Positions 1 to 17,227 of a DNA stretch of 43,903 nt are shown here, piece after piece (the first letter of the stretch is position 1; every line of letters starts with the position of its first letter). The stretch lies in contig JAHEZQ010000034.1 of NCBI GenBank assembly GCA_023250955.1, forward strand, positions 1-43,903. The letters run 5' to 3'. The DNA comes from Melioribacter sp. (GTDB taxonomy: Bacteria; Bacteroidota; Ignavibacteria; Ignavibacteriales; Melioribacteraceae). Under the pieces are notes generated by a model. It saw nothing but the letters and a program-made list of their open reading frames with translations, ran no database searches and was not told where the DNA came from. Both the position numbers and the translations under genes were made by a program.

Positions 1-1
1 T

Positions 2-775: not shown

Positions 776-793
776 TATGCACATAAATTAAAT

Positions 794-2843: not shown

Positions 2844-3977
2844 CTATAAAGAGTATACTCCATATTTAGGATTCTTAATCAATCCATCGTTTGTCAACTT
2901 ATTCAAAAGAGTACTAATGTTACTTTGTTTTTTATTTAACTTCTCCGAAATCTCAGATGTTTTCATTGCCCGACCTTCTCTGCTTAATAAAGTAATGATT
3001 CCCATTCTCTCTGGTGTAGTATCAATAGTACTATCAATATTTTCAGCAGTAAAACTACAATTAGTTCTGTCAAATTTTAATGACAACTCATCAGCTATCA
3101 CATCTTTACCAGTTACATGAAGAGTATAATTAGATTTATTTTTTGTAAGGACAAATAATGTATCAGCCCCAGCAGTAACACCCGTTGTTCCTTGAATTTC
3201 ATCGATTATATAATTATCGAAATTAAGTGGTTTCCTAGTATGATGAACAAATAATAAACAAATTTTTCTCTCCATAGCAAATTGTTGAAACTCTGCTATT
3301 AACTGATATTCTCTAAAATAATTTTGTTTGGGTGATGAAGAATGTTTTGTAGCTCGACCGAGAGTATCAATTATAATTAATTTCAACTTGTGCTTTTCTA
3401 CATATTCACCTAAAACATCCAATCCACCTTCATCAATTTTTAAAATTCTTTCTCCGTATAAAAAATGTAAATTATCTGGTGCTTCAGCAGAAGGAAATAG
3501 AGATGATTTTAGCAACATATTTACTCTGTCTTGTAATCTTCTTTCAGAATCTTCATAATATACATAAAGAACATTTTTGGGTTCTACTTTTATTATACCC
3601 AATACATAAGTGCCAAAACATATTGAGAAAGAAAAATTTAAGCATAGCCAACTTTTTCCTAACTTAGGTCTACTAGCTAAAATCGCAAGTCCTTCAGGTA
3701 ATAGGTCTGGAATTATCCATTCTACTGGCTTAATTTTTTTTAACTGTATGTCTCTGGCAGAAATTAATAAATCATCTTTTTTAATCATCTTGTCATTAGT
3801 CTCATTTACTTTTGAAACAATACCTAGCGTTTCACGATAATATAAAACAGATTCTACCGCTATTTCCTCAGCTACTTCTTTTGTTAGATAACCGTCATTT
3901 TCACAAATAGCAGAACGTTCTTCAAATATTTCCTTTTCGATTTCAGAAAGTTCAAGTAAGTCTATTTTCTTATTCAA
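2844..3977 (-). CDS. RepA-like RecA-fold ATPase (AAA_25) with C-terminal winged helix
   Basis: 377 residues. A PEGLAIL strand leads into Walker A RPKLGKSW (103-110), YVYYEDS follows at 139-144, Walker B is KLIIIDT (199-205), and LLFVHHTRK (241-249) and GTTGVTAGADTLFVL (263-277) complete the pattern of hexameric RepA/DnaB-like replication helicases of plasmids and integrated elements. Residues 325-377 (TPERMGIITLL...) form a winged helix likely to bind DNA. The start is TTG at 3977, overlapping the previous gene's stop by a few bases; AAGGAG at 3988-3993, 10 bases away, supports it. It is the last gene of a three-gene minus-strand operon (4616 to 2844). It probably drives replication of the excised island, or is a remnant of such a function. 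Confidence 0.85.
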   Translation of the reverse strand: MNKKIDLLELSEIEKEIFEERSAICENDGYLTKEVAEEIAVESVLYYRETLGIVSKVNETNDKMIKKDDLLISARDIQLKKIKPVEWIIPDLLPEGLAILASRPKLGKSWLCLNFSFSICFGTYVLGIIKVEPKNVLYVYYEDSERRLQDRVNMLLKSSLFPSAEAPDNLHFLYGERILKIDEGGLDVLGEYVEKHKLKLIIIDTLGRATKHSSSPKQNYFREYQLIAEFQQFAMERKICLLFVHHTRKPLNFDNYIIDEIQGTTGVTAGADTLFVLTKNKSNYTLHVTGKDVIADELSLKFDRTNCSFTAENIDSTIDTTPERMGIITLLSREGRAMKTSEISEKLNKKQSNISTLLNKLTNDGLIKNPKYGVYSL

Positions 3978-4191
3978 TTTTCAAAAACTCCTTAGAATTC
4001 TCTATATTTTTTTCAACTTCTCCTTCGATAGGAGATTTTCTATTAACTTTTGGATAATTAGGATTTTTACCTACCCTAAAGGGGTATAGAGGACAAGAGT
4101 CAATAACACAATTTTGTACTTCTTTATATTGACCATTTGAACAGTCTAAGCAATGTAAACGAATTGCTTTTGTTGGCGTTATGGTTTTCAT
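3970..4191 (-). CDS. Small four-cysteine protein, probable zinc finger, phage/island type
   Basis: 73 residues. HCLDCSNGQYKEVQNC, then IDSCPLYPFRVGKNP, gives C-x2-C-x10-C-x5-C, a likely zinc-binding knuckle. Small proteins with a CLDC...CPLYPFR pattern are common in phages and integrated elements next to replication genes; their function is not known to me. The ATG overlaps the upstream stop as TAATG, and the end overlaps the RepA-like start by 8 bases, so the three genes are translationally coupled. Confidence 0.75.
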   Translation of the reverse strand: MKTITPTKAIRLHCLDCSNGQYKEVQNCVIDSCPLYPFRVGKNPNYPKVNRKSPIEGEVEKNIENSKEFLKIE

Positions 4192-4616
4192 TATGCGACC
4201 TCATTGAAGAAATCTTCTTGATGACCAATAGAATTTTCAAATTGTTCAGCAGTTTTCAGATTTAATTCATCAAGAGTGACAAATATTTGAAGTTCGAAAC
4301 CCTTGTTGGAAAACTGATATGCTTTACCATTTTTCAAAAAATAATTTCTGGTTGAAATGAAATTCTGTCCGTTAAGCGAAATAACTATCCATTTGAATTT
4401 TATATTTTCATCAGATAAAAGGGAGTAGGATAATCCGAGTGAATTGGATTTACGAAATAAATGCTTCTCTGTACGCTGGGTTACGAAAGTTCCTTCACCA
4501 GAGGTATCAATCCTACCTATGAATCTTGATTGATGTGCTAAGTTTAGCTTTACGTTAAAAACGTGAGGGTGCTTAGTTTGTAATAATTCGATTTGTTGGT
4601 TAGTTTTGTTTTGCAT
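4191..4616 (-). CDS. Hypothetical protein, first gene of the RepA-like operon
   Basis: 141 residues, no family recognised. It is rich in polar residues and beta strands, with the repeated theme FxTQRTEKHLF, FKWIVISLNGQNF, and a C-terminal acidic helix ending in NEVA. The ATG at 4616 follows AAAGGAG at a good distance. It is coupled to the Cys-rich gene by TAATG. Position suggests an accessory to element replication (inference). Confidence 0.65.
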   Translation of the reverse strand: MQNKTNQQIELLQTKHPHVFNVKLNLAHQSRFIGRIDTSGEGTFVTQRTEKHLFRKSNSLGLSYSLLSDENIKFKWIVISLNGQNFISTRNYFLKNGKAYQFSNKGFELQIFVTLDELNLKTAEQFENSIGHQEDFFNEVA

Positions 4617-4639
4617 TTCTAAACTCCTTTACGGCTAAG

Positions 4640-4669
4640 GGCAAGTGCTTGAACGCTTGCCTTTTTTTT
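4640..4669 (+). terminator. Rho-independent terminator-like hairpin, plus orientation
   Basis: GGCAAGTG (4640-4647) pairs with CGCTTGCC (4654-4661), with a CTTGAA loop, followed by eight T. It points plus, yet no plus-strand gene lies upstream, so it may stop antisense transcription. On the minus strand the same stem sits in the leader of the 4616 gene just before its ribosome site and could hide or expose it. Confidence 0.5.
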
Positions 4670-4679
4670 ATTCCCATAT

Positions 4680-4723
4680 AGAAAAAAAGCCGGAGAGTCT
4701 TTTACCAAGAGACAAACCGGCTT
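4680..4723 (-). terminator. Rho-independent terminator, minus orientation
   Basis: On the minus strand AAGCCGG (4723-4717) pairs with CCGGCTT (4693-4687), with an inner GTCT/AGAC stem (4713-4710 with 4700-4697), followed by a run of seven T in total (4688-4682). It lies between the 5648-4839 gene and the RepA-like operon. Confidence 0.7.
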
Positions 4724-4778
4724 CTCAATGAGAATAAGAGAAAATTTTATTTGATAAGACTTTTAGAGTCTCTTGGTA
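4703..4778 (-). promoter_or_regulatory. Possible attenuator/antiterminator between two minus-strand genes
   Basis: TACCAAGAGAC on the minus strand at 4778-4768 is perfectly complementary over 11 bases to GTCTCTTGGTA at 4713-4703, which lies inside the terminator loop and stem. An RNA from the upstream gene could therefore form either the terminator or this alternative helix. The complementarity is seen directly; the switching is inferred. Confidence 0.45.
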
Positions 4779-4838
4779 GGAGTTAAGAGGTCATTTGGGA
4801 GCCAATCCCAATTCCTAAAAGGGTAAAGTATAGATGGT

Positions 4839-5648
4839 TTATTTTATACCACAAAGGTTATACCAAGAAAGAGCAGTTTTGTTATTAACACCTAATTTTT
4901 TGCTAAGTTTATTAAAATTAATAGTCCCATTTTTTTTCATGCAATCTGATTTTTCTGATTGCAAATCTTTTTTTAGTAATTCAATATCATTTGTTAACAA
5001 CTTTCCCTCCCGATACAGACCAATTCTGCTGCTATAATTCGGGTATAGAATAATTTGCCTACTTAAACGTAACTCTTTCAATAAATTATGAGCTACATAA
5101 AGTTCATTGGTTAAATATTTAATTTCTTTTTCTTTTTCTTCGATTGTTGATTTTAACTTAAAGATGAAAGGTTCTTGTTCACTTAGTGGTATTTCATAAA
5201 GGATTTTTTTACCTAATTTTTCACAGTCACGTAATTGATGGAGAATTGTCTCTTTCATTTTTACAATTGTATCTAATTCACTGATTTCATGAGCTAATTC
5301 ATTTTTCAGTTCAGCTAATGAAACTTCAATCCAATCCTTCAATTGAATTCTGCCTTCATCATTAACTTTTTCTAGTTTTAACATCTTCCATTTTTTGTTG
5401 ATATTGATAAAGGTATTATCAAACACAATATCAGGATGTTTGTAAATTATTTTTCTTAAATCACCCGTAACTACGATTTCGATGTTATTACATGTATTAT
5501 CATTTAATAAATTCAAAGCTTGCAAGTTTGAGCCAATGGCATAATTAAGAATTCTAATAGATTCTTTCTTTATGGAGATAGATTCAGACAATTTTATTGA
5601 ATCTTTTTCATACTCGCTTAACCTTATTTTGATTTCTGACATGTTCAT
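4839..5648 (-). CDS. Coiled-coil protein with C-terminal helix-turn-helix
   Basis: 269 residues from the ATG at 5648, chosen because AAGGTGG ends 8 bases before it; a GTG at 5660 lies inside that ribosome site. Residues 1-45 and roughly 110-225 are long charged helices (SELDTIVKMKETILHQL, STIEEKEKEIKYL) likely to form coiled coils. The last 27 residues (NFNKLSKKLGVNNKTALSWY) look like a helix-turn-helix of resolvase/Hin type. No family is recognised for the whole. It is transcribed away from the restriction operon and ends at an attenuator-like region. It could be a regulator or a DNA-bridging protein of the island. Confidence 0.7.
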   Translation of the reverse strand: MNMSEIKIRLSEYEKDSIKLSESISIKKESIRILNYAIGSNLQALNLLNDNTCNNIEIVVTGDLRKIIYKHPDIVFDNTFININKKWKMLKLEKVNDEGRIQLKDWIEVSLAELKNELAHEISELDTIVKMKETILHQLRDCEKLGKKILYEIPLSEQEPFIFKLKSTIEEKEKEIKYLTNELYVAHNLLKELRLSRQIILYPNYSSRIGLYREGKLLTNDIELLKKDLQSEKSDCMKKNGTINFNKLSKKLGVNNKTALSWYNLCGIK

Positions 5649-5674
5649 ATTTGAAACCACCTTAGTAACCTTTA

Positions 5675-5689
5675 ATACTATAATAGTAT
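5675..5689. promoter_or_regulatory. Palindrome in divergent promoter region, possible operator
   Basis: ATACTAT-A-ATAGTAT is a perfect 7-bp inverted repeat about one central base. It sits 26 bases upstream of the minus-strand HTH-protein gene and 79 bases before hsdR. It is a candidate binding site for the HTH protein; chance is possible because it is AT-only apart from one C-G pair. Confidence 0.3.
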
Positions 5690-5768
5690 GAATGCACTTT
5701 AATTATGATTATAAGTTAAATTAATCATTTCTTTTACAATTGTTTACTAAAACCTTAATTTACAGTTA

Positions 5769-8150
5769 ATGACTGAACCTATAATAAATATCAACGACTA
5801 CGAAAGTGAAGCCGATACATGCCGTAAAGATGTCTTGCCTAAAATCTATGCAAGTGACTGGAAAGACGAGCAGATTTTAGAGCAGCGGACTTTCACTGAT
5901 GGTAAAATAGTGGTACTTGGAAGAAAAGCAAAAAGAAAAAAAGCAAAACGTTTTGACTACCTGCTTCGTTTTACACAAAACTTTCCTATTGCAATTATTG
6001 AAGCTAAAGTAAAATACAAAAAAGCGGCAGATGGTATACAGCAAGCAAAAAACTATGCTCAAATACTCGGAGTTAAATTCGCATATAGCACTAACGGTAC
6101 TGATATATTAGAATTTGATTTTACAACTGGTATTGAGAAACTAGTTTCAAAATATCCCCAGCCAATGGAGTTATGGAACAGATTAAATTCAGTTGAGCCA
6201 GTTAAAACAGAAATTCAAGAAACATTTCTAAAACCATTTTATGCTATTATTGGTAAAGAAATTCGCTACTACCAACGCATTGCAATCAATACTGCAGTAA
6301 AAGCAATTTTAGAAGGAAAGAAAAGAGCATTGCTTACACTTGCAACAGGTACAGGAAAAACTACCATTGCGTTTCAAATTATTTACAAACTTTGGAACAA
6401 CCGTTGGAACATCAAGGGTGAATATCGCAGACCCAAAATTTTATTTATTGCAGACAGAAGCATTTTAGTTACTGACCCACATGCAAAAGATTTTGCGGTA
6501 TTTGGTGATGCAAGATGTTTAGTCCCTGATGAAGGTTTGCCAAGTAGTAGAGAGATTTACTTCTCAACTTACCAATCATTAGCAGAAGATGAAAACAGAG
6601 TGGGAGCATTCAGAAATTTACCTAAAGATTTTTTTGATTTGATAGTAGTTGACGAGTGTCACCGTGGTAGTGCTACGGACGACGGTAACTGGAGAATAAT
6701 TCTAAACTACTTCAATACTTCTGTTCAGTTGGGTTTAACTGCAACTCCGTTGCGTGAAGATAACAAAGATACTTATCAGTATTTCAGAAACCCTCTTTAT
6801 ACTTATAGTTTGAAGCAAGGAATTGAAGACGGATTTTTAGCACCTTACATTGTGCATCGTATAGTTCCCGAACCAGATGCAATGGGTTGGCGACCAGAAG
6901 AAGGACAAGTTGATGATAATGGACTATTAATACCTGACGGAATTTATACAACACCTGACTTTGAAAGTTCACTATCCTATTTGCCAAGAACAAAAGCCGT
7001 TGCAAAACATCTTTATGATTTCATGGTGAAGAATGGAAGGTTTGATAAAACAATTGTGTTTTGTGTGAACCAACTTCACGCTGACGATTTTCGAAGAGAG
7101 TTTAGCAACTTGAATGCTGATTTGGTTATTCAGTATCCAGATTATGTTGTGAGAATTGTTTCCGATGAAAAAGAGATTGGGAAAGGTCATTTGGGCAAGT
7201 TTATGGATATTGATGAACCAATTCCAGTTGTTGTAACAACCTCTCGTCTATTAAGCACAGGCGTTGATGTGCAGACATGCAAGAATATTGTTTTATGCCG
7301 TATTATAAATTCAATGACTGAGTTCAAACAAATTATCGGTAGAGGAACAAGAGTTAGAGAGGACAAAGAGAAGTTATTTTTTACCATACTTGATTACACT
7401 GGAAGTGCTACAAGAAATTTTGCTGACCCTGACTTTGATGGAGAACCGCCATTGATAACTGAAGAAGAAATTGACGAAGACGGTAACACAATTCCAGGAA
7501 CAGAAAAAGATTTTCCAAACCCACCTTCACCCGATGATGAGGATGAAACACCAAAGCCACCAACAGGCGGTGGAGGAAGAATAGTGTATCGCATCAGCGA
7601 AGGTGAAGTAAGAATTGCAGCAGAGAGTGTTCAAATACTTGGAGCAGACGGAAAATTAAGAACAATTCAATTCACTCAATACGCCAAAGAACAAATCATA
7701 ACTTTATTCCCTTCTGCAAATGAGTTGCGAAGCAGATGGAGCAACAGCGAAGAACGAAAGGAAATTATTGAACAGTTGGAGAACAACGGAATTTCCATTG
7801 ACCAACTAATGGAAATTACAAAACAGAAAGAAGCAGACCCGTTTGACTTGCTTTGTTTTGTTGCTTATGATTTGAAACCGAAAACAAGAAAACAGAGAGC
7901 TGAACTTTTCAAGAAAAATAAAACTGATTTCTTTTCGCAATACAGCGAAAAGGCACAACTAGTTTTGCAAATGATTTTAGAAAAGTATGTTGACTTTGGT
8001 TTGAAAGAAATCCGACCTGATATAATTTCAGTTGACCCTTTTACTTTGCTAGGAAACACAATTGAAATTGTAAATGAGTTTGGCGGAATGGACAAATACA
8101 AACATGCAATTGAACAATTACAAAAACTACTTTACGCAGAAGCTGCATAG
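5769..8150 (+). CDS. hsdR: Type I restriction endonuclease R subunit, EcoEI type
   Basis: 793 residues. The N-terminal nuclease domain shows RFDYLL (Asp63), AIIEAK (Glu78, Lys80) and a QQAKNYA segment (92-98) matching the QxxxY motif of type I nucleases. The translocase core has Walker A ATGTGKT (192-198), DECH (295-298), LGLTATP (321-327) and, later, GRGTRVRED (motif VI). An acidic, proline-rich linker (LITEEEIDEDGNTIPG onwards, then PNPPSPDDEDETPKPP) leads into an EcoEI-type C-terminal domain. It translocates DNA with ATP and cleaves unmodified DNA when bound to the methylase/specificity protein encoded 9 bases downstream. The length is typical for EcoEI-type subunits. All motifs are intact. 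Confidence 0.93.
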   Translation: MTEPIININDYESEADTCRKDVLPKIYASDWKDEQILEQRTFTDGKIVVLGRKAKRKKAKRFDYLLRFTQNFPIAIIEAKVKYKKAADGIQQAKNYAQILGVKFAYSTNGTDILEFDFTTGIEKLVSKYPQPMELWNRLNSVEPVKTEIQETFLKPFYAIIGKEIRYYQRIAINTAVKAILEGKKRALLTLATGTGKTTIAFQIIYKLWNNRWNIKGEYRRPKILFIADRSILVTDPHAKDFAVFGDARCLVPDEGLPSSREIYFSTYQSLAEDENRVGAFRNLPKDFFDLIVVDECHRGSATDDGNWRIILNYFNTSVQLGLTATPLREDNKDTYQYFRNPLYTYSLKQGIEDGFLAPYIVHRIVPEPDAMGWRPEEGQVDDNGLLIPDGIYTTPDFESSLSYLPRTKAVAKHLYDFMVKNGRFDKTIVFCVNQLHADDFRREFSNLNADLVIQYPDYVVRIVSDEKEIGKGHLGKFMDIDEPIPVVVTTSRLLSTGVDVQTCKNIVLCRIINSMTEFKQIIGRGTRVREDKEKLFFTILDYTGSATRNFADPDFDGEPPLITEEEIDEDGNTIPGTEKDFPNPPSPDDEDETPKPPTGGGGRIVYRISEGEVRIAAESVQILGADGKLRTIQFTQYAKEQIITLFPSANELRSRWSNSEERKEIIEQLENNGISIDQLMEITKQKEADPFDLLCFVAYDLKPKTRKQRAELFKKNKTDFFSQYSEKAQLVLQMILEKYVDFGLKEIRPDIISVDPFTLLGNTIEIVNEFGGMDKYKHAIEQLQKLLYAEAA

Positions 8151-8159
8151 AAAATAAAA

Positions 8160-10346
8160 ATGAGTAAAAAGAAAAAAGAAAAAATCGTAAAACAAGAAAC
8201 ACCAACGCAACGCTTATCAGGCATCATAAAAAGTTGCCGTAAGATTATGCGTAAAGACAAAGGCATGAATGGTGATGCAGACCGTTTGCCAATGCTTACA
8301 TGGATTATGTTTCTAAAATTTCTTGACGACAACGAACAGTTGCAAGAAGTGAACGCAGATTTAGAAGGAAAGAAATATAAACCTGCAATTGCAAAACCTT
8401 ATCGGTGGAGTGATTGGGCAAGAGATAAAAATCTTACAGGTGATGATTTACTTGCGTTCATCAATAATGAAACTGTAAAACTTGCAGACGGAAAAGAACG
8501 GACAGGGTTGCTTTATTACTTGCGTGGCTTGCAAAGTGAAACAGGAACAGAACGCAAAGATGTAATCGCAACAGTTTTTAAAGGAGTAATAAACCGAATG
8601 ATTAACGGTTACTTGTTGCGTGATGTAATAAACAAGATTGATGAAATACATTTCACCAACAACGAAGAAGTAAATACACTCTCTCACTTGTATGAGAGCA
8701 TACTCAAAGAGATGCGTGATGCAAGCGGAGATGCAGGAGAATTTTATACGCCACGACCAGTTGTAAAATTTATGGTTGACATGCTTGACCCACAAATTGG
8801 CGAAATAGTTTTAGACCCAGCCGCAGGCACAGGAGGATTTTTAGTTGAAACATTTGAGCATTTAAAAAAGCAAGTCAAAACAGTTGGACAAAAAAATATT
8901 CTGCAACGTAAATCTTTGTTCGGTGGAGAAGCAAAACCACTTCCCTATTTGTTGTGCCAAATGAATTTGCTTTTGCATGGTTTGGAATATCCAAACATTG
9001 ACAGCGGAAACAGTTTGCGTTTTCCTTTGCGTGATATTAGCGACAAAGACAGAGTGAATATTGTTTTAACTAATCCACCTTTCGGTGGAGAAGAAGAAAA
9101 AGGAATCTTAAATAATTTTCCAGAAGATAAACGAACTTCTGAAACAGCATTTCTTTTTCTTCAAATGATAATGCGAAAGTTGAAAAGGAAAACACCAACA
9201 ACAGACGGAGGCAAAGCAGCAATCGTAGTTCCTAAAGGAACATTATTTACAGACGGAGTTTCAGCAAGAATCATGGAACAACTTCTAAAAGATTTTGAAG
9301 TTAATACGATAGTAAAATTAGCAGAAGGAGTTTTTGAACCCTACACATCAATAACCTCTTATTTAATTTTCTTCAATCATACAGGAAACCCAACTAAGAA
9401 AATTTGGTATTACGAAATCATTCCGTCAGAGCAAAGAAAAAAATACAGCAAGACAAAACCAATTTACTATGAAGAGTTTGACGAAATAAAAAAGTGGTGG
9501 AACAAAAGAAAGAAGAATGAAAATTGTTGGACTGTTTCTATTGATGAAATTTTGCAGAGAGATGAAAAAGAAAATTTATCAGTTAATCTTGACTTCAAAA
9601 ATCCGAACAAAGATTACGTAGTTACTTATGCAGACCCACTTGATACTGCAGATGATTTAATTGAAAAACAAAAATCTGTTACAAGTGAACTGCAAGAAAT
9701 AAAAACCGAACTTGATAATTTCTATTCAACCCTTTCAGAGAAATTTGATTTAGTTCCGCTTTCATTAGTTTTGAAACAATACAGAGTTGAAACTTGGATT
9801 GAGGACAATATAAATTACAAGCAGCTAACTATTTCAAAGTATGAAGGCATAAAACAGAGAGGACATAAACTTGGGTACGACATTGGAAGAAAAAGGCAAT
9901 TCATTGTGGATTTGGATAAATATCCAAATTCGATTCTTTACACAAGACAAACACTTCAACAAGACGAAGCAATTGGTTTAGCACCTTATGAAGTGAATGG
10001 CTGTATCACGACTGAAAACATGCCTATGTTCACAGTTACAGAAGCAGAGCCATTGTATGTTCATTATTTTTTCAAGTCAAACTTTTTTTTGAAACAGTTA
10101 CATAAAACGTCTGCAAAGGGAACTTCACAACAAACAATTCATGAGGATACATTTTTGACTTACTTAATTCCATTACCTGAACCCAATATTCAAAAGGAAG
10201 TAATTCGTTTGTTAGAGAAAGTAATTAAACTCAAAGAAGCACAAGAGGAAATAAGTAAATCATTATCCGAATTGTTTCCAGCAGTTTTGCAAAAAACATT
10301 TTCTGAAGAAACTATTCAACCAAAGAAAGAATTATTGAAAGCATAG
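8160..10346 (+). CDS. hsdM: Fused type I DNA methylase and specificity subunit (HsdM-HsdS)
   Basis: 728 residues. Residues 15-110 are the HsdM N-terminal helical domain (RLPMLTWIMFLKFLDD). The N6-adenine methylase core holds GEFYTPRPVV (193-202), the S-adenosylmethionine motif DPAAGTGG (219-226) and the catalytic NPPF (305-308). From about 530 to 715 it changes to a specificity-subunit target-recognition domain plus conserved helix (AKGTSQQTIHEDTFLTYLIP, then KLKEAQEEISKSLSELFPAV). Normal HsdS has two recognition domains; here there is one, fused to HsdM, so a dimer reading a symmetric site is likely (inference). It follows hsdR by 9 bases in one operon. Confidence 0.92.
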   Translation: MSKKKKEKIVKQETPTQRLSGIIKSCRKIMRKDKGMNGDADRLPMLTWIMFLKFLDDNEQLQEVNADLEGKKYKPAIAKPYRWSDWARDKNLTGDDLLAFINNETVKLADGKERTGLLYYLRGLQSETGTERKDVIATVFKGVINRMINGYLLRDVINKIDEIHFTNNEEVNTLSHLYESILKEMRDASGDAGEFYTPRPVVKFMVDMLDPQIGEIVLDPAAGTGGFLVETFEHLKKQVKTVGQKNILQRKSLFGGEAKPLPYLLCQMNLLLHGLEYPNIDSGNSLRFPLRDISDKDRVNIVLTNPPFGGEEEKGILNNFPEDKRTSETAFLFLQMIMRKLKRKTPTTDGGKAAIVVPKGTLFTDGVSARIMEQLLKDFEVNTIVKLAEGVFEPYTSITSYLIFFNHTGNPTKKIWYYEIIPSEQRKKYSKTKPIYYEEFDEIKKWWNKRKKNENCWTVSIDEILQRDEKENLSVNLDFKNPNKDYVVTYADPLDTADDLIEKQKSVTSELQEIKTELDNFYSTLSEKFDLVPLSLVLKQYRVETWIEDNINYKQLTISKYEGIKQRGHKLGYDIGRKRQFIVDLDKYPNSILYTRQTLQQDEAIGLAPYEVNGCITTENMPMFTVTEAEPLYVHYFFKSNFFLKQLHKTSAKGTSQQTIHEDTFLTYLIPLPEPNIQKEVIRLLEKVIKLKEAQEEISKSLSELFPAVLQKTFSEETIQPKKELLKA

Positions 10347-10366
10347 AATGAAACCAAGAATATTTG

Positions 10367-11614
10367 ATGCCACCAATAAATTTATCTATTGAATATTATG
10401 ACACGGCACAGCGAAACCTCTTTCAAGGTTTTCCCAACGCTGCAACTTTGAACAATCTTGTTCAGAACGGAATTACAATTTCAAGAGATGAATTTCTTGC
10501 TTACATGATGTTCACAGAGCAGATGGACAGAAACGGCTTCAGAACTTACAATGATTTACAAGGAAGAATTCGAAACAGGATAGGCGACATTGACGATTTC
10601 CTTTCATTCAACAACGGAAGTGTTCAAGCAAGAATAATTGGCAATGATATGATGCAAATTGGCTTTACAGAAAGAATCGGTGTTGCTCTTGGATTGTGTG
10701 TTATTAATAAGATTCATGGATTGACAGCCGCTGATTGGAAAAAAATACCAACAGCACCAGGGAGAGGTGGACATCCAACATTTGATTTTGAAATTCCTGT
10801 CGCATCAACAGGAAGTAATTTTATACAGGCAGAAAATAAAGGAAGCGCAGTTACTGATAATCTTTTGCAAAATGCGTCTGTACAAACCCATTACAGAGGA
10901 ATTCAAACTAAAAAGGAATATGTAAGAAAAGAAGAAGCAAAAAGACAAATCCCTATTCATCAAAACTTGTATTATGGAACAATTGGCGTTTTAGATAACA
11001 AAGCTAACAGCATAGTAAAAGTCTGGCTTGTTGACCCGCCTGCTTTTGAAATTGAAATAAAACCTAAAAAATACAAATTACTTGCACGACTTCATTACTA
11101 CTTAGACGAATTCAGAAATATCGGAGTAAGAGAAAAAATTATAAAGGCTTTGGAAATACGTATTAAGGAAATTGAAAATAGTGATGACTACTTAAAGTTT
11201 AACAATGTTCACTTGGATTATCCTCCGCTAAGAGGGTTCCACCTTTTTATGGATGGAAAAATGTTTGCAGCAGTTGACCTTAATGAAGCGTTTGGTCGAA
11301 TTTTTCTTGTTGTACGAGAGCAAGTGGTTTTGCCTTATATAATAGCATACCCCAAAGCAATTATGAGAATAATAATGCAGCAAAATTTTGAAAGTATTCT
11401 AAATTATGAATACAATCCAGATTTTATCAAAGATAATGTTCAGGTTCTATTGCGTTTAGGTTTAGAAGATTTAGTGGATAAGCAGCTTCCAAGCGGGATG
11501 AAGTTTATTTTCAACGAACGCAGAAAATTTTACGAAACAACATATTTTGGAAAAGTTAGCCATTCTACCGACGGCAGGATTTTTGGTTTATTGAACAATA
11601 ATGATATAAAATAA
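10367..11614 (+). CDS. Third protein of the restriction operon, unknown, possible nuclease motif
   Basis: 415 residues from the ATG at 10367; a TTG at 10364 directly precedes it and is less likely. I do not recognise a family. Residues 137-160 read HPTFDFEIP...FIQAENKGS, a strand-Asp...strand-Glu-x-Lys spacing (D141, E157, K159) that resembles a PD-(D/E)xK nuclease core. The resemblance is weak and untested. Residues 205-350 are mixed alpha/beta (TIGVLDNK, VKVWLVDPP). It lies 20 bases after hsdMS and must be co-transcribed with it. It may be an accessory nuclease, a restriction modulator or an unrelated passenger. Confidence 0.75.
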   Translation: MPPINLSIEYYDTAQRNLFQGFPNAATLNNLVQNGITISRDEFLAYMMFTEQMDRNGFRTYNDLQGRIRNRIGDIDDFLSFNNGSVQARIIGNDMMQIGFTERIGVALGLCVINKIHGLTAADWKKIPTAPGRGGHPTFDFEIPVASTGSNFIQAENKGSAVTDNLLQNASVQTHYRGIQTKKEYVRKEEAKRQIPIHQNLYYGTIGVLDNKANSIVKVWLVDPPAFEIEIKPKKYKLLARLHYYLDEFRNIGVREKIIKALEIRIKEIENSDDYLKFNNVHLDYPPLRGFHLFMDGKMFAAVDLNEAFGRIFLVVREQVVLPYIIAYPKAIMRIIMQQNFESILNYEYNPDFIKDNVQVLLRLGLEDLVDKQLPSGMKFIFNERRKFYETTYFGKVSHSTDGRIFGLLNNNDIK

Positions 11615-11772
11615 TATGATTTTTTTTCAACCATAATCAATTCTCACACTAAGTCTTTATATTTTAATTATGTAGCAAGTTTATAGATGCTTTTAAATTT
11701 CGCTTTTCAGGTGAGAGTAAAATCCAGATGTTAGTCTGGTCTATTCACAAGTGTATTACTATTTTATGAATT

Positions 11773-12660
11773 TTATGCTTTTATATAAAAATGATTTTGA
11801 CATGGAATTTTAATCTTAATAACATCCTTTATAATCCCTTCTCTCTCTACAATTTTTATACAGTCAGAGTATGGCTCAAACTGAAGGCAATCATATATTT
11901 TCTTATAAGTATTATTTTTAAAATATGTTCTAATTAATCTTAATATTCTATAAATGTCTGGTACGCCCGCATCATAATTTAGGACAGTTGGTTCGTTCCA
12001 CAATTCTTCGGGAATCAATCCGAGTGATGTAATAACGATTTTATGTGCTTTATCATAATCTATACCTTGTTTACTTAGTATAGTTTTAATTTTTTTATGT
12101 GTGATTGATTCATTATAAGGTCTTTTTAGTGCACATGGTAATAATAAGGCAATGCTTTTTGTACTCTTCAATAAAAGAATTTTCTTTTCTAATTTTTTAA
12201 TACTAGGTCTTCCATGAGCTAACCAGCTATTCAATAATAGTTTCTTTTTCCTTTTATTCATTGAAGATGATGTAAATTCTTTGATTTCTTCATTAATATA
12301 TTTTTGGTTGAGATTAATTTTGTTATCTGCTATATAAATAAAATCACTAATAATAGGGTCATATACACTCATTGATTCAATTAAACTTCTAAGCATGCCC
12401 ATTTTTTTCGCACTCGATGTAATCTCTAGAAATTGTTTTGGAGGAAGGTCTGAAACAAATGGAATATATTCTCTAGGTACAGTATAGCCGTTCCATTTTA
12501 CTCTATACCATTCAAAAATTGGTACCCAATGTAATGGGAAATTACAGAATCGAATTTTCTCTCTATTTTCAATAGTATTTTTCACTAATCTGGGGAGAGT
12601 AGAATTTCCCGCATACCAATCTTTTCTTAGTGAAGTAAAAAAGAAATCTTTATAATTCAT
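11773..12660 (-). CDS. ArcS-like protein (archaeosine-synthase-type domain), island encoded
   Basis: 295 residues. Residues 175-188 read PCALKRPYNESITH. This fits PC-x3-(K/R)PY-x2-S-x2-H, the signature of archaeal ArcS, which adds lysine to preQ0 in tRNA on the way to archaeosine. Downstream, HKIVITSLGLIPEELW (206-221) and NYDAGVP (228-234) match the ArcS family pattern of a 'P/SLG-x-xP-x-EL ... YD' strand-loop. The ArcS Pre-PUA/PUA parts are not seen; the first 165 residues are unrelated to anything I know. AGAGGA in the end of the upstream gene serves as its ribosome site. It is last of three tightly spaced genes with a TGT-like enzyme. Likely role: further modification of a 7-deazaguanine base inserted by that enzyme. 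Confidence 0.8.
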   Translation of the reverse strand: MNYKDFFFTSLRKDWYAGNSTLPRLVKNTIENREKIRFCNFPLHWVPIFEWYRVKWNGYTVPREYIPFVSDLPPKQFLEITSSAKKMGMLRSLIESMSVYDPIISDFIYIADNKINLNQKYINEEIKEFTSSSMNKRKKKLLLNSWLAHGRPSIKKLEKKILLLKSTKSIALLLPCALKRPYNESITHKKIKTILSKQGIDYDKAHKIVITSLGLIPEELWNEPTVLNYDAGVPDIYRILRLIRTYFKNNTYKKIYDCLQFEPYSDCIKIVEREGIIKDVIKIKIPCQNHFYIKA

Positions 12661-12670
12661 TTAAGTCCTC

Positions 12671-14188
12671 TCATTCCATAAAGTCCCCAGATAAACTAAT
12701 GCCCCAGGGTTTGATTATTAATAATTCACAATAACATTTATCCCCAGTTATTTTTTTTATTGGACATTCAGTAGTCACGTCATTGATATTGTCACTTTTA
12801 CTAGCCTCAAGACAAAATCGCTTTGCATGATTATATATCCACAAATCAATCAAATCAAAGATGTGGTAGTCTTTAATATCAATTAGCTTTCTGCCAAAAA
12901 TAAATTCAATAACATCTTTCTCTGGAATTTTAATATAAGGAGAGTGGATAAGGTCACTAAAAGATTTAACAATTCTATTTAAAGTTGACTTAACTAGTAC
13001 TTCAAAACTTTTATCAATTTTAATTCTAGTAACATGGTCTAGAATTTTTAGGCATCGAGTATTTAGTATAAATGCAGCGATTCCTGCATTGAATGGATAT
13101 TGGATGTCCTTCAAGTATAGTTTTTTCCATATCTCATTTCGAGCAGCAATTTTTACGAAAAGTTGAGTTATTCTTTGATTCTTTGAACTACGGCTTATTT
13201 CCTTAAATCTACGGAGTCTAACGAATAGTAACATTTTAGATACTTTATTGAAGAAAGGTATAAATGCTAACTGATAGGCATTCCCATCATATTTTTTGAC
13301 CAATCTATTTATTTCATTGTTGACCCCATCTCTAATTGCAACATCATTTGGCATATTTGCACCAAGATTTATTAATTCTTCAATATAATCTTTCTTTTCA
13401 ATAACACATGTTTTAATAAAATTAATGCTAAATGGTTTTTTGTCAGCATAAGCAACTTTAGCTAATTCTTTCCAAAATAATTGATATTGGGCACGTTTTG
13501 CACCCTGATATAATCTTGAAAAACTTTCAAATACTACTCCGATAAAAACATAATTTGCAATTTCAATAATGGGTAGTTTTTGCTTATCTAGTGTAGGAGC
13601 TTGAAAATACAATTCAAAATAAGCAGAATGTCTCTGTTGGGTTTTACCTTCTTCCAAAAGTATTTTTTGGATATCACTTCCTATGGTGTTGATTTTTTCG
13701 TCATCAAAAACTCCCATCCAATTGAAGTTATGTACATTGATAAAATTCTCAGCGCATATCCAACCGACAGAATTTCTTACTCGTGGTATAAGCTTAAGAA
13801 TTTTTAATAACAAATTGGATATTAATTTCTCTTGTAATTCAAAGTTAATTAGTAACAACACTAATGAAATATAAATTTGATACTCCAGCAAACTAGACAA
13901 TAAACTATGTTGAGTAGGTGTTTTATCAACAGATATTAGACCACAGATATTACTAAATAAAAAGTAAATACTTATTATAAACAGAATATAGAGGAGGAAT
14001 GACATTAAGCGATTAAACCATTTAACTATTATATTGTATGGAAATCCAATATCGCCTAATTCTATCTTTACATTTTTCATTCGTTGATGTTGTGCTAAAA
14101 TTGTTTCTCTTGCTTTAAAGATTCCAGTAATTGCTGAATAGACAACTGCTGCTAAACTTAGTGTAGTTTTTATAAGCTCACTTTCCAT
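12671..14188 (-). CDS. Membrane-anchored protein of unknown family in the TGT/ArcS operon
   Basis: 505 residues, family not recognised. Two transmembrane helices are evident at about 61-84 (LMSFLLYILFIISIYFLF) and 98-117 (LEYQIYISLVLLLINF); residues 5-25 are also apolar. The remaining ~380 residues are probably cytoplasmic, helical and basic (RLRRFKEISRSSKNQR), with IKTCVIEKKDYIEELINLGA recalling a short repeat. Near the C-terminus, CPIKKITGDKCYCE holds three Cys. AGGAG before the ATG overlaps the stop codon region of the TGT-like gene, and the next gene starts 10 bases after it, so the trio is one operon. It may be a membrane effector or anchor for a nucleic-acid modification system (inference). 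Confidence 0.8.
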   Translation of the reverse strand: MESELIKTTLSLAAVVYSAITGIFKARETILAQHQRMKNVKIELGDIGFPYNIIVKWFNRLMSFLLYILFIISIYFLFSNICGLISVDKTPTQHSLLSSLLEYQIYISLVLLLINFELQEKLISNLLLKILKLIPRVRNSVGWICAENFINVHNFNWMGVFDDEKINTIGSDIQKILLEEGKTQQRHSAYFELYFQAPTLDKQKLPIIEIANYVFIGVVFESFSRLYQGAKRAQYQLFWKELAKVAYADKKPFSINFIKTCVIEKKDYIEELINLGANMPNDVAIRDGVNNEINRLVKKYDGNAYQLAFIPFFNKVSKMLLFVRLRRFKEISRSSKNQRITQLFVKIAARNEIWKKLYLKDIQYPFNAGIAAFILNTRCLKILDHVTRIKIDKSFEVLVKSTLNRIVKSFSDLIHSPYIKIPEKDVIEFIFGRKLIDIKDYHIFDLIDLWIYNHAKRFCLEASKSDNINDVTTECPIKKITGDKCYCELLIIKPWGISLSGDFME

Positions 14189-14197
14189 TTTTTACTC

Positions 14198-15319
14198 CTA
14201 TTGCAACTTTGGAATTATAATTTCATTTAATATACGAGTAAAGAATTCCGATTTTTTTAATCTATCCGCTACAAATTGATAGTGTCGTTTCATATTTATT
14301 GCTTTTCTAAGGTTTTCTATTTCTGAAATAAAAACATAAGCATTATGAGTTGCTCTAGCTACTGCAAATTTTTGAAGTGTAGACAAACGATTCCGCATAT
14401 TTTTTTCTGAGCAGAATGGACATCCACAATTAGATAACAATTCTAGTTCATTATCATCTAATTTTCTACGATATCTAGTCAGACTAACAATTTTACTTAC
14501 GTTTCTATTTGTTGACCCTGGTAAAATAATTTCACCGAAGGCAGCTTTTGTTCTCCACGAGGTTGAATCGAAAGAATCAACTCCTAACATTGAAAGTAAG
14601 TATATTGTGCTTAAACTACCTGCTCCAAACGCATGTAAAATTAAATCTGAATTATTTTTTTTTATTGCTAGCATTAAGTCAGATATGAAATCCCACCTCC
14701 CCAATTTAGGCGATACTTTCTTTTTATATATACTAAATTTGTCGCCAATAAAACTATTCATAAATAGAGGGACTAAACTACCAACTCCCAGTATTTTTAA
14801 AGCTGGATTTATCTGACGAATCTGTTCCAATCTTTTTTGTACTAAGTTTTTATTATAAGTATGTAAAATTGGAATAAGATTTAGTAAAGAATTTGATTCA
14901 AACATGTAACGAGTATTTTGTATTGTTTTTGTCCATCGTCTATAATTAGAAGTATTTGTTGCTAAGGGGCTAAGCGGAATATCAAGAATTGCAGCAAATT
15001 CAGGAACTAACTCTTTATATAATATTAGTAAATCATTAACATCTACTTTACTTTTGCCAGTTCGTTGGAATAAAAATCCACCAGAATCTAAAAAAATATT
15101 TCCCTTAAAATTCAACATTTTTTTTATTCCAATATTTTTAGCTTTTTCTGTCACTCTTGGTTTTTGATAAAAATTGTATGCATTTAGCATCAGCCCTGGA
15201 CAATAATCAAGATGGTTCCAAACTTTAATTGATTGGAATAAATCATGCCCTAACCAAATAACAGGAGTTGTTATTGATGAATCATCGAGAGATATTCTAT
15301 TAATTTTACCTAAACCCAT
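14198..15319 (-). CDS. TGT-like transglycosylase (DpdA-like candidate), operon first gene
   Basis: 373 residues with the tRNA-guanine transglycosylase plan. IFLDSGGFLFQ (75-85) carries the conserved Asp78, LDIPLSP (112-118) matches the D-x-x-x-x-P motif that contacts the base, and ILGVGSLVP (176-184) the glycine loop. GVDSFDSTSWRTKAAFGE (246-263) has Asp251 at the nucleophile position. The zinc site is C298-G-C300-PF-C303 with H325 in ATHNAY. It is much diverged from housekeeping TGT. The family exchanges guanine for preQ1, queuine or preQ0 in tRNA; DpdA members do so in DNA. With an ArcS-like protein two genes on and a restriction operon beside it, DNA or a specific RNA is the likelier target. 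No strong ribosome site precedes the ATG. Confidence 0.85.
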   Translation of the reverse strand: MGLGKINRISLDDSSITTPVIWLGHDLFQSIKVWNHLDYCPGLMLNAYNFYQKPRVTEKAKNIGIKKMLNFKGNIFLDSGGFLFQRTGKSKVDVNDLLILYKELVPEFAAILDIPLSPLATNTSNYRRWTKTIQNTRYMFESNSLLNLIPILHTYNKNLVQKRLEQIRQINPALKILGVGSLVPLFMNSFIGDKFSIYKKKVSPKLGRWDFISDLMLAIKKNNSDLILHAFGAGSLSTIYLLSMLGVDSFDSTSWRTKAAFGEIILPGSTNRNVSKIVSLTRYRRKLDDNELELLSNCGCPFCSEKNMRNRLSTLQKFAVARATHNAYVFISEIENLRKAINMKRHYQFVADRLKKSEFFTRILNEIIIPKLQ

Positions 15320-15720
15320 AAAAAAGATTCTAATTTTTTCGTTTCAATCTCACCAATTTATTAATGTAAAATTATTTTTTATGCAATAGTTAGTGGTATT
15401 TTGGAAAGTGTTCTGAATGTGAGACATCCCCTTAAGATACCCCAAACCTTTTTAATAAGAAAACATACTCATCTGTAAAAATTATAATATTAAATTCATT
15501 AGTATTCAATTCTAAAATCATTATAACTTAATGAAGTAATATCATTCATTCAATAAAAATCAATTTTTACCTAAAATCTTTTTATCTCAATTATTGAGTA
15601 AATTGATAGATACTCTTAAGTCTTCGCTTCTTGATAGGTATATATCTGAGTAGTAGGAGAATTCAGCTTAATACATAATATTGAAATACAAATAATTCTA
15701 TCTAACAATTATATAGATTC
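15320..15720. other. Non-coding upstream region of the TGT/ArcS operon
   Basis: About 400 very AT-rich bases with stop codons in all frames and no RNA gene that I can see. It must hold the promoter of the minus-strand operon starting at 15319, but no TAnnTTTG element was found in the near upstream. An untranslated RNA cannot be excluded. Confidence 0.45.
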
Positions 15721-16038
15721 TTAATTCACAAGAGGATTTACAACTAGACAACCTTCAGCGATTGCTAATGTCATTGGATAATACTTTGTAAACGAACCAC
15801 TCCCAGTCTCAATTACACAATGAATATCTTCGTCTTTATTATTAACGATAAATTTATAGAACTGTGAAGGGGCACAAGTGACATATACTTTAATACTTAT
15901 ATTTTTATGATTTGGATTGCTTGGAGGGAATACTTCACCAATAAATGTTTCCTCATTTAAATTAGCTTCCCATTCGTTCAATCCAAGTTTTCTTAACAAT
16001 TTTACATCACGTTCGTATGGTTTGCCTTTATTGAACAT
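15721..16038 (-). CDS. Hypothetical protein between integrase and TGT operon
   Basis: 105 residues, no family recognised. The N-terminus is basic and helical (YERDVKLLRKLGLNEWEA); the rest is beta-rich (ISIKVYVTCAPSQFYKFIV and TGSGSFTKYYPMTLAIAEG). There is no signal peptide or membrane segment. AAGGAGA precedes the ATG at the right distance, supporting a real gene. It lies downstream of the integrase on the same strand with about 60 bases between, so the two may be co-transcribed. It may be an excision factor or an island regulator, but nothing shows this. Confidence 0.6.
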   Translation of the reverse strand: MFNKGKPYERDVKLLRKLGLNEWEANLNEETFIGEVFPPSNPNHKNISIKVYVTCAPSQFYKFIVNNKDEDIHCVIETGSGSFTKYYPMTLAIAEGCLVVNPLVN

Positions 16039-16098
16039 TTGAATCTCCTTGTAGTTCTTAACAAATATTTAATTAATATATCAGTTAATCGGGAAAAA

Positions 16099-17118
16099 TC
16101 ATGTAGCCATATTATTAATTTTATTTACTGAATTTAATGAATCTTCGCTTCTAAGATGAGAGTATATTTCAGTTGTCTTTATATCTGAATGACCTAGTAA
16201 TTTACTTACTTGATAAATAGAAACACCAGCTTGTACAAGCCAACTTGCAAACGTATGTCTTAGCGAATGGAAGTTTAATTTATTATTTAACTCTGACTTA
16301 ATAATATAATATCTGAATTTTCTTAGTAACTGACATGGTGTAATTTCTCTTCCGTTTATTGTAAATACTTTTTGACCAATCTTAATTCCATTTCGTTTAT
16401 TCAGAACAGCTAATGAATTATCATTTAATGGAATAGTCCTTATTTTTTTGCTTTTTGTAATATGGGTTCTATTATCAAGAATTATCATACGTTCTTGAAT
16501 ATTAACCTGACTCCATTCAAGTGATAATATTTCCATTTGTCTTAAACCGGTATTAACAGCAAATTCAATTATATCCTTTATATCCACTTCTTGAATTTGA
16601 TTCACTAATAATGAAAACTCCTCCTTAGTGAAATAAGTAGGTAGTTTCTGAGGCATCTTGAATCGTTTAATTGAAACGCAGGGATTTGAAAGTAAATATT
16701 TTTGACTGATAGCCCAATTAAAACAACTTGATAGATTTATGAGGTCTTTCCTCGCTTGGTAAATAGATGATTTAGTTATTCTGTAGTCTAAATAGTTTCT
16801 AATTAATTTTTCTGAAATATCCATGAGGTTTATATTTTGGCAATATTCACTAAAGTATTTGGATGTAGTAATAAAAGTAGCAGTAGTTTTAATAGTATGT
16901 ATTGATTCAGAATGTTTTATGAATTCTTTACTAAATGAATTGAAATCAATAGGTATATACAATTGTTTTGATTTTTTCTTAATTTCATTAGAGAAGTTTG
17001 TGAGAAACTGGAATGCTTCCTTTTTTAATTTAGACTTAGTTGATATGGCTTGTCTTATTCCATTTCCATCATCATAATAAATATAATAGTATCCGTTAGA
17101 ACGTTTAGATATGAACAT
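16099..17118 (-). CDS. Tyrosine recombinase (island integrase)
   Basis: 339 residues from the ATG at 17118; codons upstream to 17163 are in frame but the protein starts naturally at MFISKRSNGYYYIYY, with AGGA 8 bases before it. The N-terminal half is a SAM-like core-binding domain (60-150). The catalytic domain has Arg193 (NTGLRQMEI), H284-x-x-R287 (FHSLRHTFAS), His310 (LLGHSDIKTT) and the nucleophile Tyr319 (EIYSH), all present. It lies 78 bases inside the right repeat and presumably recombines the 32-bp tRNA-Glu attachment sites. The enzyme breaks and rejoins DNA through a 3'-phosphotyrosine link. It looks functional. Confidence 0.93.
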   Translation of the reverse strand: MFISKRSNGYYYIYYDDGNGIRQAISTKSKLKKEAFQFLTNFSNEIKKKSKQLYIPIDFNSFSKEFIKHSESIHTIKTTATFITTSKYFSEYCQNINLMDISEKLIRNYLDYRITKSSIYQARKDLINLSSCFNWAISQKYLLSNPCVSIKRFKMPQKLPTYFTKEEFSLLVNQIQEVDIKDIIEFAVNTGLRQMEILSLEWSQVNIQERMIILDNRTHITKSKKIRTIPLNDNSLAVLNKRNGIKIGQKVFTINGREITPCQLLRKFRYYIIKSELNNKLNFHSLRHTFASWLVQAGVSIYQVSKLLGHSDIKTTEIYSHLRSEDSLNSVNKINNMAT

Positions 17119-17195
17119 TATTATTAATCCTAATAGGGAAGCAGTCATCAATTGGGTCAACAATGAACTGTAAGTAGTATATATTATTGTAGCTT

Positions 17196-17227
17196 ATCAC
17201 GGGTTCGACCCCCGTACGCGCTACAAA
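17196..17227. repeat. attR: 32-bp direct repeat of the tRNA-Glu 3' end
   Basis: Identical to 840-871 over 32 bases, ending in CGCGCTACAAA. Only the T-arm and acceptor 3' strand of the tRNA are present, so no second tRNA is made. It marks the right end of the island; host sequence resumes at 17228. Confidence 0.92.

What the first reader, a model, noticed from the sequence alone, without database searches (positions are those of the whole stretch)
11773..12660. Bacterial, island-borne ArcS-like protein without the usual ArcS surroundings
ArcS belongs to archaeal tRNA archaeosine synthesis. Here the core motif PCALKRPYNESITH and the SLGLIPEELW...NYD pattern occur in a bacterial mobile island. 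The ~165-residue N-terminal part is unlike ArcS and may give a new target specificity.
Basis: partly seen in the sequence, partly recalled or inferred. Interest (0 to 1): 0.75.

Follow-up and report, generated by a model that had tools for sequence, protein, structure and literature searches.

The report
Bacterial ArcS–TGT–membrane protein gene cassette
A bacterial mobile island carries a trimmed version of an archaeal RNA-modifying enzyme next to the kind of base-swapping enzyme it normally works with and an unknown membrane protein, and the same three genes turn up together in a distant bacterium, pointing to an undescribed system that may put an unusual modified guanine on DNA or RNA.

Summary
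The ORF at 11773-12660 (-) is real; its C-terminal half is the ArcS core (DUF5591, 43.6 bits; fold match to AF0587, Z 13.4). Residues 79-165 are ArcS-like too; only 1-78 are unmatched. And an ArcS partner is present: the gene is last in a tight minus-strand run, TGT (14198-15319) – 505-aa protein with two probable TM helices – ArcS-like. The island is exactly delimited (872-17227; 32-bp tRNA-Glu repeat at both ends; clean empty site in three congeners). The same three genes lie together, in another order, on a 9.3-kb Acidobacteria MAG contig (45%, 26%, 24% identity). Similar standalone ArcS-like proteins occur on phage contigs beside QueC (13 of 13 loci) and sometimes a phage TGT (5 of 13). 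Most likely the pair changes guanine → preQ0 → amine (lysine?) adduct on a nucleic acid, more likely DNA than tRNA position 15, using host preQ0; the membrane protein is a sensor or effector (inferred). It fails defining tests of archaeal ArcS, Dpd, BRC and type IV CBASS. No activity, target or defence role is shown.

The parts
11773..12660 (-). ArcS-like protein, 295 aa (DUF5591 core plus the stretch that precedes it in archaeal ArcS); no PUA hit, no full TGT-like domain
11848..12171 (-). DUF5591 (ArcS core) match, residues 164-271, with P175-C176, P181-Y182, H188, G214, P217, Y229-D230
12671..14188 (-). 505-aa protein, hydrophobic stretches at residues 53-88 and 95-114 (two probable TM helices) and a long C-terminal part; no Pfam, NCBIfam or PADLOC hit above threshold; homologue in L033 (24% over 435 aa)
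14198..15319 (-). 373-aa TGT-family protein; D78 and D251 align with D95 and D249 of P. horikoshii ArcTGT (catalytic role recalled); zinc-site residues C298, C300, C303, H325
15721..16038 (-). 105-aa ORF between TGT and integrase, no significant family hit; no homologue among the loci held, L033 included; membership of the cassette unproven
16099..17163 (-). tyrosine recombinase (island integrase)
794..868 (+). tRNA-Glu (CTC), integration target
840..871 (+). attL, 32-bp direct repeat in the 3' end of tRNA-Glu
17196..17227 (+). attR, identical 32-bp direct repeat
872..17227 (.). the island, 16,356 bp; left and right flanks abut (0-1 bases between) in three congeners, L053, L054, L055

Best explanation
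A mobile two-enzyme 7-deazaguanine modification cassette with a membrane partner. (1) The TGT swaps guanine in a nucleic acid for preQ0 made by the host's own queuosine pathway. (2) The ArcS-like protein adds an amine, by analogy lysine, to the preQ0 nitrile; in archaea this step stops the TGT from reversing its exchange. (3) With no RaSEA found, the product should stay an amine/lysine adduct rather than become archaeosine. (4) The target is probably DNA (or a nucleic acid other than G15 of tRNA), because neither enzyme has the tRNA-binding PUA module, the TGT does not group with tRNA TGTs, and ArcS-like proteins of this architecture otherwise sit in phages beside preQ0 genes. (5) The membrane protein is a sensor or effector that acts on the modified or unmodified state, most simply phage defence or self-marking of the island. 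Shown: gene content, homology, conserved catalytic residues, co-occurrence in two distant genomes, mobility. Inferred: chemistry, target, the membrane protein's role, defence.
For: Three-gene run with gaps of 9 and 10 bp. The same three genes together in L033: ArcS-like 45%, TGT 26%, E 2e-24, membrane protein 24% over 435 aa, E 2e-11, its soluble part alone above all 500 shuffles. In sampled genomes DUF5591 and the membrane protein were found only in the cassette genomes: 1 of 296, 1 of 164, 1 of 376, 1 of 396. Catalytic and zinc residues of the TGT kept in both cassettes. One clade of the two cassette TGTs with ArcTGT and four bacterial Tgts is rejected, AU p 0.001 (set named after the first tree, the four Tgts from one order). 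The window TGT matches the phage TGT family phrog_887 (52.4 bits), the family of the phage TGTs beside ArcS-like genes (95.8-162.4 bits). 13 of 13 viral loci of the A3 scan (12 distinct sequences) have a QueC-like gene near the ArcS-like gene, 5 of 13 such a phage TGT. Own genome has QueC, QueF and FolE/QueD-like genes, no RaSEA above the cut-off. ArcS transfers lysine to preQ0 even in a nucleoside, and ArcTGT does not exchange preQ0-Lys (PMC11298593, abstract).
Against: No activity, product or target was measured. The TGT's best NCBIfam model is archaeal tRNA TgtA (94.9 bits), not DpdA (16.3). One tree puts it on the phage-TGT side (98/97), but with fewer long rows it lies between phage TGTs and the tRNA/haloarchaeal TGTs, and a clade that leaves it on the tRNA/haloarchaeal/ArcS-domain side is not rejected (AU p 0.40); the DNA target is not established. 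ArcTGT works without its PUA domain (reference title seen), so lack of PUA is weak evidence. The genome that holds L033 has no QueC above the cut-off (20.9 of 22 bits), though it is a fragmented MAG. No nuclease or known effector domain was recognised in the membrane protein; its model failed (pLDDT 40.2). Only two cassettes are known, one on a MAG contig that may be mis-binned. The two cassette TGTs are not shown to be sisters (support 45/77 and 70/51).
Confidence: 0.5

Rival explanations
1. tRNA modification: the pair makes preQ0-Lys (archaeosine-like) in particular tRNAs of the host, the island or a phage, altering translation or shielding tRNAs from nucleases; the membrane protein is a separate or toxin-like partner.
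For: TGT scores best against archaeal tRNA TgtA (94.9 bits) and its only PDB hit is ArcTGT; archaeal ArcS and ArcTGT act on tRNA; the PUA domain is reported dispensable for ArcTGT (title).
Against: One clade of the cassette TGTs with ArcTGT and bacterial Tgts is rejected (AU p 0.001); neither protein has a PUA hit; ArcS-like proteins of this architecture otherwise found in phages beside preQ0 genes.
Confidence: 0.2
2. Nucleobase-protein conjugation: the ArcS-like enzyme joins the preQ0 nitrile to a protein amine (a lysine or N-terminus of the membrane protein), with the TGT-family protein binding or handling the base, as Cap9/Cap10 do in type IV CBASS.
For: Precedent: Cap10 is a TGT-family enzyme remodelled to bind a protein N-terminus linked to 7-amido-7-deazaguanine (PMC11996544, abstract). 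ArcS chemistry joins a lysine amine to preQ0. The membrane protein is the only further gene seen in both cassettes.
Against: No QueC-like Cap9 and no CD-NTase among the island proteins scanned; the TGT keeps both catalytic aspartates and the zinc residues, as for base exchange. PADLOC's 'TGT' model (its link to CBASS is recalled) hits the L033 TGT at 17.0 bits and a haloarchaeal one at 18.1 bits, not the window TGT.
Confidence: 0.1
3. The TGT and ArcS-like genes work for the nearby type I restriction-modification genes (5769-10346) as a second self-mark.
For: Same island.
Against: No restriction gene was recognised next to the cassette in L033 (the contig ends 567 bases past the membrane gene); the R-M genes are on the opposite strand and carry their own methylase.
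Confidence: 0.07
4. Relic of a phage DNA-modification cluster carried by the island, no longer functional.
For: Phage-type ArcS-like architecture, no preQ0 genes among island proteins scanned.
Against: Three intact ORFs with catalytic residues kept, and ArcS-like 45% identical across phyla; the membrane protein was not found in the one viral scan (weak patterns).
Confidence: 0.08

Closest known systems
Phage ArcS-like (DUF5591) proteins with a phage TGT (DpdA type; name recalled) and preQ0 genes (Vibrio phage nt-1; contigs L019, L020)
   Same: ~300-aa standalone ArcS-like protein with the same N-terminal stretch; TGT-family gene adjacent in L019/L020; BFVD match to the nt-1 protein, E 3.7e-7
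   Different: Phage clusters such as L019 carry preQ0 genes themselves; the island does not, and adds the membrane protein. Window + L033 ArcS-like form their own clade, 100/99
Archaeal ArcS + ArcTGT + RaSEA (archaeosine synthesis)
   Same: ArcS core and TGT family, conserved residues
   Different: No PUA hit, no full TGT-like N-terminal domain, no RaSEA above the cut-off, extra membrane protein
Dpd system (7-amido-7-deazaguanine in bacterial DNA)
   Same: TGT-family enzyme in a bacterial island
   Different: TGT scores 12.9 and 16.3 bits against DpdA models; no other Dpd protein hit among eight island proteins scanned with PADLOC
BREX-related capture (BRC) systems with TGT and GNAT
   Same: A TGT proposed to mark DNA (PMC12839542, passages)
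   Different: No PglZ, DUF6079, DUF4007 or HerA hit in the island proteins scanned; 'ArcS' and 'archaeosine' do not occur in the BRC paper's text
Type IV CBASS (Cap9 QueC-like, Cap10 TGT-family)
   Same: TGT-family protein reused in an immune operon
   Different: No QueC-like or CD-NTase gene among island proteins scanned

Membership tests
Archaeosine synthase ArcS (alpha subunit) | DUF5591 core with conserved PC..KPY..H and YD motifs | tested here: met
   Pfam 43.6 bits over a cut-off of 26; C176 and H188 in 29 of 30 rows; Z 13.4 to AF0587
Archaeosine synthase ArcS (alpha subunit) | NCBIfam ArcS equivalog score | tested here: not met
   46.9 of 440 bits, 41.8 of 600 bits
Archaeosine synthase ArcS (alpha subunit) | N-terminal TGT-like domain and C-terminal PUA domain | tested here: not met
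   295 aa against 587-796 aa in 12 archaeal rows (starts as the script chose them; L034, a fusion, and L047, cut by its contig, not counted); match starts at residue 79; no PUA hit
Archaeosine synthase ArcS (alpha subunit) | RaSEA partner | tested here: not met
   Own genome: best 27.1 bits, cut-off 212.15
Archaeosine synthase ArcS (alpha subunit) | Lysine transfer to preQ0 | not testable with these tools
   needs enzymology
TGT superfamily | Two catalytic Asp and CxCx2C...H zinc site | tested here: met
   D78, D251, C298, C300, C303, H325; aligned with D95, D249, C279, C281, C284, H307 of P. horikoshii ArcTGT
DpdA / Dpd system | DpdA-level TGT plus further Dpd genes | tested here: not met
   DpdA 16.3 of 200 bits; PADLOC 12.9 bits, no other Dpd hit among eight island proteins
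Phage-type 7-deazaguanine DNA modification | Standalone ArcS-like protein of ~300 aa | tested here: met
   12-row alignment A5 (window, L033, 10 viral) with 23 invariant columns from residue 16 to 247
Phage-type 7-deazaguanine DNA modification | TGT of the phage clade | tested here: inconclusive
   phrog_887 hit, 52.4 bits; same side as phage TGTs at 98/97 in one tree, in between in another
Phage-type 7-deazaguanine DNA modification | preQ0 synthesis genes in the cluster | tested here: not met
   None among island proteins scanned; host has QueC elsewhere
BREX-related capture (BRC) | PglZ, DUF6079, STAND, DUF4007, HerA | tested here: not met
   No such hit above threshold among 13 island proteins scanned with Pfam; sub-threshold nSTAND matches of the R-M helicase only
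Type IV CBASS | CD-NTase and QueC-like Cap9 | tested here: not met
   No such hit among 13 island proteins scanned with Pfam and eight with PADLOC
Any 7-deazaguanine DNA modification system | Modified base in DNA | not testable with these tools
   needs LC-MS

The most novel reading that the evidence does not exclude
A Dpd-independent bacterial nucleic-acid marking system whose mark is a preQ0 capped with lysine or another amine (a hyper-modified guanine that I do not know from bacterial DNA), written by a mobile TGT + ArcS-like pair from host preQ0 and read by a membrane-anchored partner; in its boldest form the amine belongs to the membrane protein itself, giving a nucleobase-protein conjugate made without any QueC-like ligase.
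Probability: 0.3. Interest if true: 0.85.

Novelty: new variant of a known kind. Interest (0 to 1): 0.62.

Why it matters
7-deazaguanines have been found in phage DNA, in the bacterial Dpd system (PMC6884629, passages) and lately on immune proteins (PMC11996544, abstract). A compact bacterial cassette that pairs a TGT with an ArcS core would bring the archaeosine chemistry into bacteria, probably on a new target, and three genes are few enough to test directly. It also shows that the ArcS core can stand outside the full archaeal protein, which helps to interpret phage ArcS homologues, whose function PMC6884629 calls less clear (passages).

Tried and rejected
Scans with single proteins or full-length alignments: searches (viral; genomes) found no relative, probably because the patterns chosen were poor; (viral) gave one contig, L019. 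A core-only alignment (A3) worked. Scans for the membrane protein and the TGT in viral contigs found none; A6 and A7 gave weak patterns, so this is not evidence of absence. Plasmid searches with ArcS-like proteins and membrane proteins: no match. Membrane protein: no significant Pfam, NCBIfam or PADLOC hit, a weak PHROG hit (E 0.0014), no significant PDB relative, AlphaFold model unusable. Structural matches below 2q07 (Z 5.3 and lower: uracil-DNA glycosylases, RecR and others) are treated as common arrangements. The Pfam TGT search of the genome behind L033 listed two other TGT pieces but not the cassette's own TGT, which the direct scan scores at 35.8 bits, cut-off 26.3.

Considered and dropped: that residues 1-78 are a foreign domain. 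Their P..W.P motif is shared with phage rows and largely with archaeal rows (P42 30 of 30, P47 26 of 30; columns) and they align weakly with the second half of the TGT domain (hhalign probability 9.7%, E 0.0033). A remnant of the TGT-like domain is likely but not proven.

Rows dropped: the 30-row alignment left out L022 (same contig as L019), L032 (identical to L031 over 13,883 bases) and L047; the ArcS tree also left out L008, a Xanthomonas phage copy without the conserved Cys and His. The second TGT tree left out six long or ArcS-domain rows. The phage TGT rows have no Pfam TGT hit and are assigned by PHROGs; the name DpdA for them is recalled.

No bacterial ArcS-TGT cassette was seen in the listings of nine literature searches (open-licence PMC only).

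Full report
OBSERVATION. The ORF is at the stated place. Residues 164-271 match DUF5591 at 43.6 bits, cut-off 26, and residues 88-272 the NCBIfam ArcS model at 46.9 bits, far below its equivalog cut-off of 440. A profile of 12 bacterial and viral relatives finds one PDB sequence, 2q07 (AF0587), E 2e-10; the AlphaFold model (mean pLDDT 77.9) matches it at Z 13.4, 119 residues, rmsd 2.8, next row Z 5.3, and matches the Vibrio phage nt-1 DUF5591 protein in BFVD, E 3.7e-7. In a 30-row alignment of window, L033, phage and archaeal proteins C176 and H188 are kept in 29 rows, P175, P181, G214, P217 and Y229 in 30.

THE N-TERMINAL PART. Profile-profile comparison with seven archaeal ArcS proteins gives 99.2% over 205 columns, window residues 79-289. 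E95 (29 of 30), D112 (30) and R151 (29) lie before the core. Archaeal ArcS has a TGT-like domain before and into this stretch (A8 against TGTs: 97.8%, archaeal residues 141-282), so the window protein keeps the end of that region and the core. Residues 1-78 give only a weak TGT alignment.

SURROUNDINGS. The ArcS-like gene is third in a minus-strand run: TGT, a 505-aa protein, ArcS-like, gaps of 9 and 10 bp. The TGT (Pfam 71.9 bits) is closest to archaeal TgtA among NCBIfam models (94.9 bits; general TGT 60.3, Q-type 29.7, DpdA 16.3) and hits the phage TGT family phrog_887 at 52.4 bits. Its D78 and D251 correspond to D95 and D249 of P. horikoshii ArcTGT (catalytic roles recalled) and the zinc residues are kept. 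It ends soon after the catalytic domain: its residues 2-355 of 373 match 17-337 of the 582 of ArcTGT. The 505-aa protein has hydrophobic stretches near its N terminus and no assigned family.

ISLAND. A 32-bp direct repeat at 840-871 and 17196-17227 from the 3' end of tRNA-Glu and an integrase at 16099-17163 delimit 16,356 bp. Of ten congener loci, three show a clean empty site: in L053 window 1-871 aligns to 583-1451 and window 17228 begins at 1452; L054 and L055 have one base between the two sides. L056 has two bases between them but a rearranged left side; L061 has 83 bases between, L057, L058 and L060 roughly 0.36-0.56 kb, and in L059 and L062 no tRNA gene was found in the stretch held. The island also carries a type I R-M set, a trypsin-like protease and an AAA_25 ATPase.

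SECOND CASSETTE. One genome scan with the core alignment returned 15 relatives among 57 pattern matches: 14 archaeal and one bacterial, L033, an Acidobacteria MAG contig of 9.3 kb. There an ArcS-like gene (5303-6181 +) is followed after 11 bp by a TGT (6193-7203 +) and a convergent 516-aa gene (7187-8737 -). ArcS-like 45% identical over 289 aa, TGT 26%, E 2e-24, membrane protein 24% over 435 aa, E 2e-11; 0 of 500 shuffles reach the observed score for the whole membrane protein, its soluble part or its TM part. In a search among ORFs of the loci then held it was the only hit beyond the window's own copies. DUF5591 was found in 1 of 296 genomes of the window's phylum and 1 of 376 of the L033 genome's; the membrane protein in 1 of 164 of the window's order and, by profile, 1 of 396 of the L033 genome's phylum: each time the cassette genome itself. 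Co-occurrence of three genes in two phyla, with changed order and orientation and different G+C (29% here; 49% in L033), makes chance neighbourhood unlikely. These are samples, and the pattern scan is a lower bound.

RELATIVES. Standalone ArcS-like proteins of this architecture occur in Vibrio phages GR11A and GR7B and at 13 viral loci (12 distinct sequences). All 13 have a QueC-like gene near it; 5 of 13 have a TGT like that of L019, whose family is phrog_887 in all five kinds tested (L022 is the L019 contig). L019 has, within 7 kb and with other ORFs between, QueD, a radical SAM protein that I take as QueE, QueC, FolE, ArcS-like and the phage TGT. In the ArcS tree window + L033 are a clade (100/99), parted from the 13 archaeal rows (96/84) with the 14 phage rows on their side, under a long-branch warning. 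For the TGT, one clade of the two cassette proteins with four bacterial Tgts and ArcTGT is rejected (AU p 0.001), but a clade that puts them with everything outside the phage, STSV1 and Aulosira rows is not (p 0.40); the two as sisters is not rejected (p 0.275) but not supported either.

MECHANISM. ArcS transfers lysine to preQ0, also in fragments and nucleoside, and the lysine adduct is no longer exchanged by ArcTGT (PMC11298593, abstract). The host can make preQ0: QueC 229.7 bits and QueF 111.8 bits. RaSEA is not found above its cut-off (27.1 of 212.15 bits; of 14 control genomes six ring, E. coli, T. maritima and L. lactis among them, and three pass the cut-off). So guanine → preQ0 → amine adduct is the most economical reading. 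Vibrio phage nt-1, which encodes an ArcS homologue, has dPreQ0, dG+ and dADG in its DNA (PMC6884629, passages), the best precedent for a DNA target. A conserved cysteine could form a thioimide with the nitrile, as in QueF (recalled; inference). The membrane protein is not explained: no nuclease domain was recognised, so 'sensor or effector' is an inference from its being the only further gene seen in both cassettes.

AGAINST. No QueC above the cut-off in the genome that holds L033 (20.9 of 22 bits), a fragmented MAG. No counterpart of the window's R-M genes was recognised in L033. The TGT's best model is a tRNA enzyme. Nothing here shows activity, a DNA target or defence.

NOVELTY. It fails defining tests of archaeal ArcS, Dpd, BRC and type IV CBASS. 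The enzyme families are known; the combination with the membrane protein was not seen in the listings of the literature searches. I rate it a new variant of a known kind.

Noticed in passing
L034:1717-2967 (+), archaeal MAG CSMAG_438: A 416-aa protein joins a RaSEA-like radical SAM stretch (109.1 bits, residues 10-205, cut-off 212) to an ArcS core (83.9 bits, 233-379): a natural fusion that supports the RaSEA-ArcS link.
   Followed up: partly
L007/L002, Vibrio phage GR11A 49.8-57.9 kb; L009, GR7B: ArcS-like gene clustered with QueC, a second PP-loop protein, ORFs without Pfam hit and a KamA-type aminomutase (lysine 2,3-aminomutase model 316.4 bits, cut-off 525): the amine donor or product may differ from lysine.
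   Followed up: partly
L008, Xanthomonas phage PhiXhv-12 (7863-8738 and 10577-12100): An ArcS-like protein without the conserved Cys and His, and a 507-aa protein annotated as an aminotransferase with a QueC-like stretch at 279-483 (131.6 bits, cut-off 150.3), in a cluster with sugar genes.
   Followed up: partly
window 5769-11614: Type I R-M set: EcoAI-type R subunit, a 728-aa protein with HsdM and HsdS-like parts, and an unassigned 416-aa protein behind it.
   Followed up: no
window 1161-2414 (-) and 2844-3977 (-): Island left end: a trypsin-like serine protease (N terminus signal-like by eye) and an AAA_25 ATPase with a C-terminal winged-helix match.
   Followed up: no
L004, L005, L006 (haloarchaeal plasmids): Short TGTs beside a DUF6884 protein and an ATP-binding protein, or beside an unknown gene and an annotated BREX ATP-binding protein; possibly like the TGTs of BRC systems in PMC12839542.
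   Followed up: partly
L003, Aulosira laxa plasmid6: A short TGT behind an SbcCD-like pair (metallophosphoesterase, AAA_23/SbcC) and a sub-threshold HerA-like ATPase; possibly another TGT-based cluster.
   Followed up: no
G298:C125:2452-3612: A congener has a second TGT at 315 bits, far above the 70.1 bits of the island's TGT.
   Followed up: no
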